This document shows, piece by piece, positions 19,384 through 25,303 of a stretch of DNA of 48,684 nucleotides; the first letter of the stretch is position 1, and every line of letters starts with the position of its first letter. Source of the DNA: an uncultured bacterium (GTDB lineage: Bacteria > Krumholzibacteriota > Krumholzibacteriia > LZORAL124-64-63); the NCBI GenBank assembly GCA_903912525.1, contig CAIWHK010000046.1, positions 1-48,684 on the forward strand. Reading direction: 5' to 3'. Below the pieces are notes generated by a model. It ran no database searches. It saw nothing but the letters and a program-made list of their open reading frames with translations, and was not told the DNA's origin. Made by a program: the position numbers and the translations under genes.

Positions 19384-22311
19384 GTGAGGATCGGGTCCCT
19401 CGGCCACATGTACATCGGGCCCACCACGAGCCCGTACAGCCGGACGTCGTCCACGGCGTCGAGCTCCGCGCGTTCGCGCGCCGCCGAAGATCTCTCCCTG
19501 CAGAACCTGGGGAAGTTCCTCTACGACATGCGCACGGTCCTGGACCGAACGCAGAAGAGCATCGACGGCGCGAGCCACAGCTGGCACCGCCGCGCCATCG
19601 ACCTCGCCGCGACGCATACGCTCCAGCTCAACGCCACGGCGAGCGCCGCAACCCTCCGCTCGAGCGGCGCGATCGGCGGCGCGCCCAACTCGTTCACGCC
19701 GACCGACCCGACGTGGAACGCCGCGTCGCGTTCGCAGGTGACGATCGGCGGCGCCTACGACGGCTCGAACGGTGACCAGACGCTGACGTTGCGCGCCACG
19801 CAGGGCGGCGTGATCGGCGAGGACGAGCTGGTGTTCGCCGTGCTCGACCAGAACGGCGACACGCTCGAGCAGCTCACCGTCGCGGGCAGCTATGCCGCCG
19901 GCGAGGACATCACGCTGGCCAACGGGCTGACGATGCAGCTGGGCAGCGGTCTCGTCGGCGTCGGCGCGGAGTTCACCGTGGCGGTCGCGTACGCGTCGAC
20001 GGATCCCTCCAGTTCCTTCGATCCCGCCGCGCCGTCGTGGTCGCTGACGCCGCGACCGGCATCCACGTTCGGCGGCGCCTATGACGGATCGAACGGCACG
20101 CAGCAGCTGACCTTCCGCGTCAGCAGCGGCGGCACGGTCGGTGTCGACAACCTGGTCATCGACGTGCTCGACCAGAACGGCGACCAGCTCGAACAACTCA
20201 GCGTGGACGGCGCCTACACCCCCGGCGACGCCATCACGCTGGCCAACGGCGTGACGCTGGGGCTCGCCGCAGGCTATCTGGGCAACGGCGACACATTCGC
20301 GATGGATGTCTCCAGCACCCCCGGCGCGACCGAGCGCACGTTCACGCCCGGCACGCCGGCGTGGTCGTCGGGCTCCACGACAGAGGCCACCATCGGCGGC
20401 GCCTACGACGGCTCGAACGGCAGCCAGACGCTGACCTTCCGCGTGGCGACCGCGGGCGAGGTCGGGACCGACGCCCTGGTGATCGAGGTGCTCGACGCCA
20501 ACGGCGACCCGCTGCAACAGATCGACATCGCCGCCGACTACGTCGCCGGTGACGCCATCACGCTGAACAACGGACTGACCATCAGCCTCGGCGCCGGTAC
20601 CGCCCTCGAGGGAGACACGTTCACCGTGGATGTGTCCGAGACGACCGGACCGGCGCAGAACGCGTTCACGCCCGTGGGCAGCGACTGGACGCCGGCCGCG
20701 CGGTCCGCCGCGACGATCGGCGGCGCCTACGACGGAACCTGGGGCAGCCAGCAACTGACCCTGCGCGCGACGGCGGGCGGCATAGCCGGTTCGAGCGACC
20801 TGCAGTTCGACGTGCTCGATGCCAACGGCGAGGTGCTGACGCAGTTCACCGTGGCTGCGGGCTACACGCCGGGCGACGAGATCGCGCTCGGCGGCGGGCT
20901 GACGCTGGCCCTGGGCGCCGGGGCGGTGGGCGTGGGCGATGCGTTCACGCTCGACGTCGCGTTCAACGCCGGCGGTGTGCAGAGCTCGGCCACGCCGGAC
21001 ACCACCGGCTGGAACACCGGGTCCAGCCCCACGGCGACGATCGGCGGGCAGTACGACGGCTCGAACGGGTCGCAGGACCTGACGCTGCGCGTCGCACAAG
21101 GTGGCGACATCGGGTCAGGCGAGGTCCTCATCGACGTCCTCGACGCAAACGGCGACGTGCTGGAACAACTGACCGTCGCCGCCGACTACTCGCCCGGGGC
21201 CGAGATCGCCCTCGCCAACGGCCTGACGCTCAGCCTCACGGCCGGCCAGGCCACCGTCGGCGACACGTTCGGCGTCACGGTCGGCACGAGCGCGTCGGTC
21301 GACGCCGACGCCGCCTTCGACGGCAGCCCCGCCTGGCTGCAGGAGGCGACCATCGCCGACGGCTCGTTCGAGATCAACGGCGTGGCCATCGACGTCTACG
21401 CCACGGACTCGCTCAACGCGGTGCTCGAGCGCATCAACGCCGCCGACGCCGGCGTCACGGCGTCCTTCAACGCCGCCACCAGCCGCATCGTCCTCACCAG
21501 CACGACCGCAGGCGGCGACGGCGACATCCAGGTGGCCAACGACACCAGCGGGTTCCTGGCCGCGACGCAACTGGACGACGCGACGCTGCAGGCCGGCGCC
21601 GCCAGCGACTTCGCCGCGTCGATGGACCAGGTTTCGGTGTTGTCGGACATCGGCAGCGGGACGATCAGCGTCAACGGGACCGCGATCGCCATCGACGTCA
21701 GCGCGGACTCGCTCAACGACATCCGCGCCAGGCTGTCCGCCATCGGCGTCACGCTCGACTACGATGCCGACGGCGAACGCTTCACGCTGCACGGCAGCGG
21801 CAGTGTCACGCTCGACGACGGCGACACGGGATTCTTCGCCGCCCTGGGGATCGAAGCCGGCGAGCACGAGGACCAGACCCTGGGCTTCGGCGCCCCGGAC
21901 GACATCACGAAGGCACTCGGCGAATTCAAGCGCACCTGGAACGAGCAGTTCGCCGGCAGCTTCGATGGCACGGCCGCCACCCAGTCCGCGCGCCTGAACT
22001 CGATGCTGCGCGCCTCGGTGCAGCGCTACTTCACCGATGCCGGCATCGCCGCCAGCGACGATGTCCTGCGCACCGACTTCGGGCTCACCCTGCGTTTCCG
22101 CCTCGACGGCGGGCTGGAGGTCGCCATCGACGAGGACACGCTCGCCGGCGCCATGCGCAAGGACTCCCAACGCATCCAGGACTTCCTCGTCGGCCAGGGC
22201 GAGAAGGCCGGCCTGCTCGACCTGTTCGACGCGAGCGTGCGCTCGACGAACGCCGGCGTCAGCGCGGTGCTCGGGGTGCGCGGCCTGTCCATCGTCAACA
22301 CCTACGCCTGA
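19384..22311 (+). CDS. FliD-like flagellar hook-associated protein with five 108-aa repeats
   Basis: A 975-residue protein. Residues 35-85 form helices (LSLQNLGKFLYDMRTVLDRTQKS). Residues 103-642 are exactly five tandem 108-residue repeats, each with (T/F)IGG.YDGSNG.Q, a V(I/F).VLD.NGD.LEQ strand and an ITLANGLT.(S/Q)L.AG segment. Next come two flagellin-IN-type hook motifs (about 660-700 INGVAIDV...DSLN.V; 760-795 VNGTAIAIDV..DSLNDI). The C-terminal region resembles FliD_C (LTLRFRLDGGLEVAIDEDTL). GTG start at 19384 with GAGG five bases before; an ATG just upstream is in a different frame that stops quickly. No signal peptide is seen, as expected for flagellar export. No other flagellar gene is nearby, so cap, filament accessory or a repurposed adhesin remain options. 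Confidence 0.75.
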   Translation: MRIGSLGHMYIGPTTSPYSRTSSTASSSARSRAAEDLSLQNLGKFLYDMRTVLDRTQKSIDGASHSWHRRAIDLAATHTLQLNATASAATLRSSGAIGGAPNSFTPTDPTWNAASRSQVTIGGAYDGSNGDQTLTLRATQGGVIGEDELVFAVLDQNGDTLEQLTVAGSYAAGEDITLANGLTMQLGSGLVGVGAEFTVAVAYASTDPSSSFDPAAPSWSLTPRPASTFGGAYDGSNGTQQLTFRVSSGGTVGVDNLVIDVLDQNGDQLEQLSVDGAYTPGDAITLANGVTLGLAAGYLGNGDTFAMDVSSTPGATERTFTPGTPAWSSGSTTEATIGGAYDGSNGSQTLTFRVATAGEVGTDALVIEVLDANGDPLQQIDIAADYVAGDAITLNNGLTISLGAGTALEGDTFTVDVSETTGPAQNAFTPVGSDWTPAARSAATIGGAYDGTWGSQQLTLRATAGGIAGSSDLQFDVLDANGEVLTQFTVAAGYTPGDEIALGGGLTLALGAGAVGVGDAFTLDVAFNAGGVQSSATPDTTGWNTGSSPTATIGGQYDGSNGSQDLTLRVAQGGDIGSGEVLIDVLDANGDVLEQLTVAADYSPGAEIALANGLTLSLTAGQATVGDTFGVTVGTSASVDADAAFDGSPAWLQEATIADGSFEINGVAIDVYATDSLNAVLERINAADAGVTASFNAATSRIVLTSTTAGGDGDIQVANDTSGFLAATQLDDATLQAGAASDFAASMDQVSVLSDIGSGTISVNGTAIAIDVSADSLNDIRARLSAIGVTLDYDADGERFTLHGSGSVTLDDGDTGFFAALGIEAGEHEDQTLGFGAPDDITKALGEFKRTWNEQFAGSFDGTAATQSARLNSMLRASVQRYFTDAGIAASDDVLRTDFGLTLRFRLDGGLEVAIDEDTLAGAMRKDSQRIQDFLVGQGEKAGLLDLFDASVRSTNAGVSAVLGVRGLSIVNTYA
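19690..21309 (+). repeat. Five tandem 324-bp coding repeats
   Basis: In-frame repeat units at 19690-20013, 20014-20337, 20338-20661, 20662-20985 and 20986-21309, each exactly 108 codons without indels. The units differ in sequence but keep the GG.YDGSNG.Q and VLD.NGD motifs. Confidence 0.88.
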
Positions 22312-23373: not shown

Positions 23374-23397
23374 CGCCCATCAATGGGCGATTTTTTC
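23374..23397 (+). terminator. Rho-independent terminator after the histidine kinase
   Basis: A 6-bp stem (cgccca/tgggcg) with a 4-base loop followed by atttttt, starting 4 bases after the stop codon. Confidence 0.8.
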
Positions 23398-23511
23398 GCG
23401 ACACACTGATATATCCACCGACCTCCATCAATATGTGATACTTTTCCTCCAGATTGCCCTTGCGCCGAAACGTGCCTCTTGCGGCGCGATCCCCACCCAT
23501 CAGGAGTCACC

Positions 23512-24345
23512 ATGCGTCACCAAACGCGGTTGTTCGCTTTTCTGTCCCTCGTCCTCCTGTTCGCGATCCTGCCCGGCGCGGCTGCCGCTTCCGGCGACCT
23601 CGCGATCTTTGCCCAGGGCGCCACCCAGGGCGTTATCCAGGGCGCGTCGACGGCCCGGGCCCACGAGAACTGGATCGACGTGTTCAGCTTCTCGCACGGT
23701 GTGTCGGTGCCCACCGGCGCCGGCGGCGCTCCCACCGGCCCGGCCGTCACATCGCCGCTGTCGGTCATGGGGAAGTTCGACCGCTCCACGATCAAGCTGT
23801 TCCGCGCCCAGGCGAACCAGGAGTTGTTCACGACCCTGAAGATGGAATGGATCGATGCCGGCACGGGCGAGATCCTGTTCCGCTACGAACTGGCCAATGC
23901 GCGCCTCATCGACGCCCAGGAATCCGGAAGCAGCGGCGGCGACAACGCACCGATCATCAGCATGTCCTTCAACTACTCGGCGATCACCATCACCGACGTG
24001 GTGCAGGGCACCACCATGACCTACAACTGGAATCCCGCCTCGGCCGCGACGCCGCCCGAGTCGCTGGCCAAGGGCATCCTGCTGAAGCCGGCGCCGAACC
24101 CGACGTACGGCCAGACGGAATTCCGTTTCTCGCTGCCGGCCGACAGCAATGCGACGCTCGAGCTCTTCGACGTGCGCGGCCGCCGCGTGCGCGAGGTGTA
24201 CAACGGCATGACCTCGACCAAGGACACGGTCGCGGTCTGGGACGGCAACGATGAGCACGGCATCCGCGTGGCGCAGGGCATCTACATCGCGCGGTTGGTC
24301 TATCCCGGGAGGGAAGTCACGCAGCGGATCACGGTGCTGCGCTGA
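23512..24345 (+). CDS. Secreted Hcp-fold protein fused to a C-terminal sorting domain
   Basis: A 277-residue protein. A signal peptide (residues 1-25, MRHQTRLFAFLSLVLLFAIL...) is followed by an Hcp/T6SS tube-protein-like domain (about 30-165). Hcp landmarks: G.IQGASTARAHENWIDVFSFSHGVS, the LSVMGKFDRSTIKLF segment, LKMEWIDAG, FRYELANARL and a final SMSFNYSAITI strand. Residues 185-277 form the FlgD/Por-type sorting domain (KPAPNPTYGQTEFRF, WDGNDEHGIRVAQGIYIARL). The ATG at 23512 has AGGAG before it. True Hcp has neither a signal peptide nor a CTD and is exported by a T6SS; no T6SS gene is in the window. A surface or extracellular ring-forming protein is inferred. Confidence 0.78.
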   Translation: MRHQTRLFAFLSLVLLFAILPGAAAASGDLAIFAQGATQGVIQGASTARAHENWIDVFSFSHGVSVPTGAGGAPTGPAVTSPLSVMGKFDRSTIKLFRAQANQELFTTLKMEWIDAGTGEILFRYELANARLIDAQESGSSGGDNAPIISMSFNYSAITITDVVQGTTMTYNWNPASAATPPESLAKGILLKPAPNPTYGQTEFRFSLPADSNATLELFDVRGRRVREVYNGMTSTKDTVAVWDGNDEHGIRVAQGIYIARLVYPGREVTQRITVLR

Positions 24346-24366: not shown

Positions 24367-24401
24367 GGACCGGGCCCTGGTCAGGGGCCCGGTCCATTTT
24401 C
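24367..24401 (+). terminator. Rho-independent terminator after the Hcp-CTD gene
   Basis: A perfect 11-bp stem (ggaccgggccc/gggcccggtcc) with a 7-base loop, followed by attttcg, 22 bases after the stop. Confidence 0.85.
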
Positions 24402-24481
24402 GTGACGATCTCCGCGCGGGTTGCGCCGGTCAACTGTGCTACGATGCCGCGCACAACCAACGCCGGGAGAGACCAAGTCCC

Positions 24482-25303
24482 ATGTTCCATGGCCCCAGGT
24501 TTGCGCGGCGGTTCGCCGCCCTGCTGCCCCTTGGCCTCGCCGCGACCGCTGCGGCGGCCACGGGCGCCGACACCTGCGGTCCCTCGCGAGCGCTTTCCGC
24601 CTATGCCCACAACGACTACCGCAACGCGCACCCCGTTGAGGACGCCCTCTCATTGGGCTACCTGGGCGTCGAGGCCGACGTCTTCTTCCGCGACGGCGTG
24701 TTCCTCCTGGCCCACGAACGCAAGGAGGTCCTGCCCGGCTTCGACCTCGAGTCCACGTACCTGCGCCCCCTGCTGGCCCGCGCACGGCAGTGCGGCCGGC
24801 TCCAGCCCGACCCGCGAACGTTCGTCATCACGATCGAGGACAAGGCGCCCACGGCCGAGAGTCGCGCGGCGATGGCGACGCTGCTCGAGCGCTACCGGGG
24901 ATTGCTGGGCGATGCCGCAGGGGCGCCGACGGCAGCGTTCATCCTGGTCGACGAGTCCGCCACGCCTGCCTCCGTCCCGGAGGAACTGAAGCGCGTGGCC
25001 GGCCTGCAATGGCGCGTGAGCCGCGGACATCCGGCCCCGCCGGTCGCTGATGCGCACGCGTATGCCCTGCTGAGCATCGACTACGGGGAAGAGATCGAGT
25101 GGGACGGCGTGGGCGATCCGCCGCCCGACGTGTGCCGGCTGGTCGCGTCCGTGGTGGACGCCGCGCATCGCGCACCCGGCTGCCTGGTGCGCGTCCACCA
25201 TGTGCCCGAGCGCCGGCGCATCTGGGAATACCTGCTCAAGGCAGGCGTCGACCGTATCGGCGTGACGGACCTGCAGCGGGGAGCCGCACTGCTGGCGCGC
25301 TAG
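24482..25303 (+). CDS. Secreted PI-PLC/GDPD-like phosphodiesterase
   Basis: A 273-residue exported protein. A signal peptide is followed by a TIM-barrel phosphodiesterase domain opening with AYAHNDYRNAHPVEDALSLGYLGVEADVFFRDGVFLLAH, split here as AHNDY (catalytic His/Asn/Asp), VEADV (Glu/Asp metal ligands) and LLAH. FVITIEDKAP is the next ligand strand, and WRVSRGHPA and GVDRIGVTDL lie near the end. It resembles the AIM6-like branch of the PI-PLC superfamily. The natural substrate is not known; phosphodiester hydrolysis is inferred. The gene runs into the next gene on the other strand with a 4-base overlap of ends. Confidence 0.8.
   Translation: MFHGPRFARRFAALLPLGLAATAAAATGADTCGPSRALSAYAHNDYRNAHPVEDALSLGYLGVEADVFFRDGVFLLAHERKEVLPGFDLESTYLRPLLARARQCGRLQPDPRTFVITIEDKAPTAESRAAMATLLERYRGLLGDAAGAPTAAFILVDESATPASVPEELKRVAGLQWRVSRGHPAPPVADAHAYALLSIDYGEEIEWDGVGDPPPDVCRLVASVVDAAHRAPGCLVRVHHVPERRRIWEYLLKAGVDRIGVTDLQRGAALLAR

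What the first reader, a model, noticed from the sequence alone, without database searches (positions are those of the whole stretch)
23512..24345. Hcp tube-fold domain fused to signal peptide and sorting CTD
An Hcp-like domain normally moves through a T6SS without a signal peptide. Here it has Sec-type signal and a FlgD/Por-type CTD, so the route would be Sec plus a CTD-dependent outer-membrane step. No T6SS genes are near. It could form rings or tubes on the cell surface: a possibly undescribed use of the Hcp fold.
Basis: partly seen in the sequence, partly recalled or inferred. Interest (0 to 1): 0.72.

Follow-up and report, generated by a model that had tools for sequence, protein, structure and literature searches.

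The report
Hcp tube protein rerouted for export
A bacterium with no type VI injection machine detected carries the machine's needle-tube protein with an ordinary export signal in front and a type IX secretion tag behind, and similar exported versions arose several times in other bacteria, so the tube protein appears to have a second, unstudied life outside the cell.

Summary
Window 23512-24345 (+) encodes 277 aa: Sec signal peptide, Hcp domain (Pfam T6SS_HCP 70 bits, cut-off 23.5; best structural matches are solved Hcps) and C-terminal T9SS type A sorting domain (TIGR04183 35 bits, cut-off 23). It is a single-gene unit with a ribosome site, terminators either side and purifying selection. The genome has no other Hcp and no T6SS sheath genes (TssB, TssC). 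It does have the T9SS translocon SprA, six PorV-family proteins and 126 copies of the same tag. The likely route is Sec, then T9SS, to the cell surface or medium. In this phylum (80 genomes), ordinary Hcp travels with the T6SS sheath; signal+Hcp+CTD occurs in four genomes of two families, none with a sheath. Signal+Hcp proteins without this CTD also occur in Planctomycetota (two with dockerin-like tails) and Bacteroidota; one origin for all is rejected (AU p=0.0002). A 2021 Hcp survey had already set aside PEP-CTERM-bearing Hcps, so exported Hcps sit unremarked in databases; the T9SS-tagged form and repeated conversion appear undescribed in the papers searched. Hexamer or tube formation and function are untested.

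The parts
23502..23506 (+). Shine-Dalgarno-like AGGAG, 5 nt before ATG 23512
   Evidence: sequence read directly
23512..24345 (+). 277-aa exported Hcp protein: signal peptide + Hcp domain + T9SS-type CTD
   Evidence: conserved in G036, G038, G009
23512..23589 (+). Sec signal peptide (about residues 1-26, AXA-type cleavage, not a lipobox)
   Evidence: sequence; conserved in type but not in letters in four relatives; hydrophobicity rule
23629..23994 (+). Hcp domain (PF05638)
   Evidence: 72.5 bits in genome search, 70.4 bits in protein
24094..24336 (+). T9SS type A sorting / FlgD-Ig-like C-terminal domain, one of 126 in the genome
   Evidence: TIGR04183 36.3 bits, 35.3 bits in protein
24367..24395 (+). 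intrinsic-terminator-like hairpin after the gene
   Evidence: 12-pair stem with 10 G-C, T-rich tail
23374..23389 (+). terminator-like hairpin that separates the gene from the histidine-kinase gene upstream
   Evidence: 6-pair stem + TTTTTT

Best explanation
The gene makes an exported, T6SS-independent Hcp-fold protein. The signal peptide sends it through Sec to the periplasm (inferred from sequence). The CTD is the lineage's general T9SS sorting tag, recognised by the SprA/PorV outer-membrane step, so the mature ~150-residue Hcp domain ends up on the cell surface or in the medium (inferred; the machinery and like-tagged cargo are shown to be present). Outside the cell the Hcp domain most likely serves as a structural or binding module, perhaps as hexameric rings, in the way secreted matrix or surface proteins do, and not as the needle of a contractile machine (inference; oligomer not tested). 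The module was recruited from T6SS-type Hcp more than once, and lineages add whatever sorting or anchoring tail they use.
For: Domains and fold. Genome: single Hcp, no VipB/TssC, no VipA/TssB, SprA PF14349 and TIGR04189 492 bits with cut-off 200, six PorV-family proteins over cut-off, 126 TIGR04183 domains including M28 and M36 peptidases in this window. Segregation in 80 phylum genomes: VipB in seven, none of them a signal+Hcp+CTD carrier; six of seven ordinary-Hcp genomes have VipB, against 0 of 4 secreted carriers (Fisher p 0.015). Purifying selection, dN/dS about 0.4 for the whole gene between G000 and G038. Solitary transcription unit. Signal+Hcp also in 7 Planctomycetota and 6 Bacteroidota genomes, six of the planctomycete carriers tested without VipB; one clade rejected, p 0.00024.
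Against: No localisation data. PF18962 is under its cut-off, and the CTD is as close to FlgD_ig as to the T9SS family. The PorU sortase and the PorKLMN motor were not searched for. A periplasmic or membrane-anchored end point is not excluded. The Hcp domain evolves faster than the CTD (dN 0.49 against 0.22 to G036), so ring contacts may not be kept. The genome is a 97.75% complete assembly, so T6SS genes could in principle be missing.
Confidence: 0.8

Rival explanations
1. It is a T6SS Hcp after all (or an orphan-island Hcp) used by a T6SS elsewhere in the genome; the signal peptide and CTD are incidental.
For: The Hcp domain scores above the TssD subfamily cut-off; orphan hcp genes away from T6SS clusters are common in the literature (PMC13098142).
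Against: No TssB or TssC in a 97.75% complete genome; the phylum's real T6SS Hcps are ~163 aa, lack a signal and, where the locus is long enough, sit next to VipB; the architecture is conserved in four sheath-less genomes.
Confidence: 0.04
2. The exported Hcp domain is a monomeric (non-ring) binding domain: the fold is kept but the tube use is lost.
For: Hcp-domain dN is higher than CTD dN to G036; only five columns are invariant between secreted and ordinary Hcps of the phylum.
Against: The long loop that in T6SS Hcps helps stack rings (established knowledge) is kept in Hcp3/EvpC-like form, HGVSVPTG..GAPTGP; no oligomer test was possible.
Confidence: 0.4
3. It is exported only to the periplasm or the outer-membrane inner face, and the FlgD-like domain is an ordinary Ig fold rather than a T9SS tag.
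For: PF13860 FlgD_ig is the best Pfam name for the CTD and PF18962 misses its cut-off; Bacteroidota and several Planctomycetota exported Hcps have no tail at all.
Against: TIGR04183 is over its cut-off, FlgD equivalogs score far below theirs (14 against 230-383); the same domain ends 126 frames in a genome with SprA and PorV.
Confidence: 0.12
4. Assembly or gene-calling artefact: an Hcp gene joined by chance to other sequence.
For: The genome is a draft in 72 contigs.
Against: G038 carries the same three-part gene at 82% identity, G036 at 57% in other surroundings, G009 two tandem copies; dN/dS well under 1.
Confidence: 0.005

Closest known systems
T6SS tube protein Hcp/TssD (PF05638, TIGR03344), nearest solved relatives 6a2v, P. 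aeruginosa Hcp3 (3he1), EvpC (3eaa)
   Same: Same fold and family by profile, sequence and structure search
   Different: Has a Sec signal peptide and a sorting CTD; no sheath, no second Hcp in the genome
T9SS type A cargo proteins (TIGR04183 CTD; SprA/PorV export)
   Same: Signal peptide at the N-terminus, CTD at the extreme C-terminus, T9SS translocon in the genome
   Different: The passenger is an Hcp domain, not a protease, glycoside hydrolase or adhesin
Hcp-domain proteins with PEP-CTERM sorting signal (filtered out in PMC8262886)
   Same: Exported Hcp with a lineage-specific C-terminal sorting tail
   Different: A different tail and system (exosortase instead of T9SS); I did not examine those sequences here
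Specialised (evolved) Hcps with C-terminal toxin extensions (Hcp-ET)
   Same: Hcp core plus a C-terminal domain
   Different: Those lack a signal peptide and depend on a T6SS (established knowledge, not tested here); the extension here is a sorting domain, not a toxin

Membership tests
Hcp domain family (PF05638) | Profile score over the curated cut-off | tested here: met
   70.4 bits against 23.5
Hcp domain family (PF05638) | Hcp beta-barrel-like fold | tested here: met
   AlphaFold2 model (mean pLDDT 64.8, core blocks mostly 70-83); the 50 best PDB matches listed are Hcps or Hcp fusions
Functional T6SS tube protein (TssD) | Encoded in a genome with sheath TssB/TssC | tested here: not met
   No PF05591 or PF05943 match in G000; none in G036, G038, G009 for PF05943
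Functional T6SS tube protein (TssD) | No Sec signal peptide (loaded from the cytoplasm) | tested here: not met
   Typical signal peptide
Functional T6SS tube protein (TssD) | Hexameric ring stacking into a tube | not testable with these tools
   Only single chains can be modelled
T9SS cargo (type A) | N-terminal signal peptide plus C-terminal TIGR04183 domain | tested here: met
   35.3 bits against 23, domain at residues 195-275 of 277
T9SS cargo (type A) | SprA translocon and PorV-family shuttle in the genome | tested here: met
   TIGR04189 492.4 bits against 200; six NF033709 over cut-off
T9SS cargo (type A) | PorU sortase and PorKLMN motor in the genome | not tested
T9SS cargo (type A) | CTD-dependent secretion and CTD cleavage | not testable with these tools
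   needs an experiment

The most novel reading that the evidence does not exclude
Hcp has been recruited several times independently as an exported, T6SS-free building block that self-assembles into extracellular rings or tubes, with lineage-specific tails (T9SS CTD, dockerin-like, PEP-CTERM) for display: a second biology of the needle-tube fold.
Probability: 0.3. Interest if true: 0.8.

Novelty: new variant of a known kind. Interest (0 to 1): 0.6.

Why it matters
Annotation pipelines call PF05638 proteins a T6SS tube or effector, so exported Hcps can produce false T6SS calls in genomes with no T6SS. More broadly, repeated conversion of a phage-tail-like tube subunit into a Sec-exported surface protein would show that the fold has uses outside contractile machines, and gives a defined set of proteins with which to ask whether it still forms rings.

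Tried and rejected
Viral contig search for relatives: none. Plasmid protein search: one ordinary Hcp of Gemmatirosa, no signal peptide. Operon logic: the gene sits between two terminator-like hairpins; the histidine-kinase ORF before it gave no match next to the gene in G038, and G036 and G009 have different surroundings, so no conserved partner gene was found. Literature searches for Hcp with T9SS, Planctomycetes, PEP-CTERM, Eisenbacteria gave no description of exported Hcps beyond the filter step in PMC8262886. The phylum of the window could not be named for certain: the nearest named hits to the CTD include Candidatus Eisenbacteria and Krumholzibacteriota, but the two same-genus contigs are filed only as 'bacterium'. 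Considered and rejected: orphan T6SS effector Hcp, assembly artefact, flagellar FlgD-type protein.

Full report
What is there. Window 23512-24345 on the + strand is a 277-codon gene. Its start, ATG 23512, has AGGAG five bases before it. The protein opens with a classical signal peptide (MRHQTRLFAFLSLVLLFAILPGAAAAS), has no cysteine, and its mature part is about 27 kDa. Residues 40-161 are an Hcp domain (PF05638, 70.4 bits against a cut-off of 23.5; TIGR03344 62.2 against 58.9). The best PDB sequence matches are EvpC and Hcp3. An AlphaFold2 model made from five homologues (mean pLDDT 64.8) matches solved Hcps first in the PDB (6a2v, E 1.2e-10; TM-score by target up to 0.85). Residues 195-275 are a T9SS type A sorting domain by TIGR04183 (35.3 bits against 23). 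Pfam gives FlgD_ig just over its cut-off and Por_Secre_tail under it. The chance of these profile matches is negligible.

Surroundings. A terminator-like hairpin at 23374-23389 ends the histidine-kinase gene upstream and another at 24367-24395 follows the Hcp gene, so the gene looks like a single-gene unit. In G038 (same genus) the FliD-like gene upstream and the cytochrome and M28-peptidase genes downstream are kept but the kinase ORF gave no match there; in G036 and G009 the neighbours differ. No partner gene is conserved. The gene is under purifying selection: dN 0.116 and dS 0.292 between G000 and G038; to G036 the Hcp part has dN 0.49 and the linker plus CTD 0.22 at similar dS.

Machinery. 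The genome (97.75% complete) has this one Hcp, no TssC/VipB and no TssB/VipA. It has the T9SS outer-membrane translocon SprA (PF14349 50.7 bits; TIGR04189 492 bits against 200), six PorV-family proteins over cut-off and 126 TIGR04183 domains, among them peptidases in this same window. So the CTD is the genome's standard export tag. PorU and PorKLMN were not searched.

Relatives in the phylum. In 80 genomes of the phylum, 11 have PF05638. Seven carry the ordinary form (about 163 aa where complete, no signal peptide). Four carry signal+Hcp+CTD: the window's genome, G036 and G038 of its genus, and G009 of another family, which has two in tandem. VipB is in seven genomes: six of the seven ordinary-Hcp genomes plus incomplete G043, and none of the four others (Fisher p 0.015 without correction for kinship).

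Relatives beyond. Of 392 Planctomycetota genomes 87 have PF05638, and of 395 genomes in the Bacteroidota sample 42. Most of these loci were read. With a home-made hydrophobicity rule for signal peptides, seven planctomycete and six Bacteroidota genomes carry signal+Hcp. Two planctomycete proteins have a dockerin-like tail by eye (L044, L132; Dockerin_1 is only 14 bits, under its cut-off); the others and all Bacteroidota ones have no known tail. Six of the planctomycete carriers were tested for VipB and had none. A tree of 164 Hcp domains needs 10 changes of the secreted label and the data reject one clade for all 18 secreted rows (AU p 0.00024); the tree has few columns and long branches, so the number of origins is rough. 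The five T9SS-tagged ones group together only with low support (43).

Mechanism. Shown: domains, fold, presence of T9SS core parts, absence of sheath genes, conservation. Inferred: Sec export, T9SS-dependent passage to the surface or medium. Open: whether the exported Hcp domain forms rings or tubes, and what it does. I give export 0.8, ring formation about 0.4, extracellular tubes less.

Known or new. Hcp-domain proteins with PEP-CTERM signals were removed in the methods of a 2021 Hcp survey (PMC8262886). No paper found describes exported Hcps as a group or a T9SS-tagged Hcp; the library holds only open-licence papers, so this is weak evidence of absence. I file it as a new variant of a known kind: a true member of the Hcp domain family, not a member of the T6SS tube component class, and very probably a T9SS cargo.

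Noticed in passing
window 19384-22311 (+): 975-aa protein with about six diverged copies of a ~100-residue repeat (TIGGAYDGSNG..LT.R) and a weak FliD C-terminal match (16 bits, under cut-off); a homologue (57% identical) also precedes the Hcp gene in G038. It could be an unusual filament-cap-like or repeat surface protein.
   Followed up: partly
L144 3631-10464 (-), SprA of the same genome: The SprA homologue has a weak match (24 bits, under cut-off) to a phage tail tube protein model over residues 785-847.
   Followed up: no
L011/L012 (G009 C38:38151-39442): Two tandem signal+Hcp+CTD genes that share only about a third of their residues in the Hcp domain; the second has lost the PNP motif at the start of its CTD and has no TIGR04183 match at E 0.001.
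   Followed up: partly
L096, L101, L102 (Planctomycetota): A well-supported subgroup (99) of small signal+Hcp proteins with no tail, which would stay in the periplasm unless another route exists.
   Followed up: partly
window 24479-25303 (+): Signal-peptide protein that looks by eye like a phosphodiesterase (AHNDYRNAHPVEDAL motif); no Pfam match.
   Followed up: no
L113 1341-2594 (-) (G443, Planctomycetota): Long ORF with what look like two weak Hcp-like domains in tandem.
   Followed up: no
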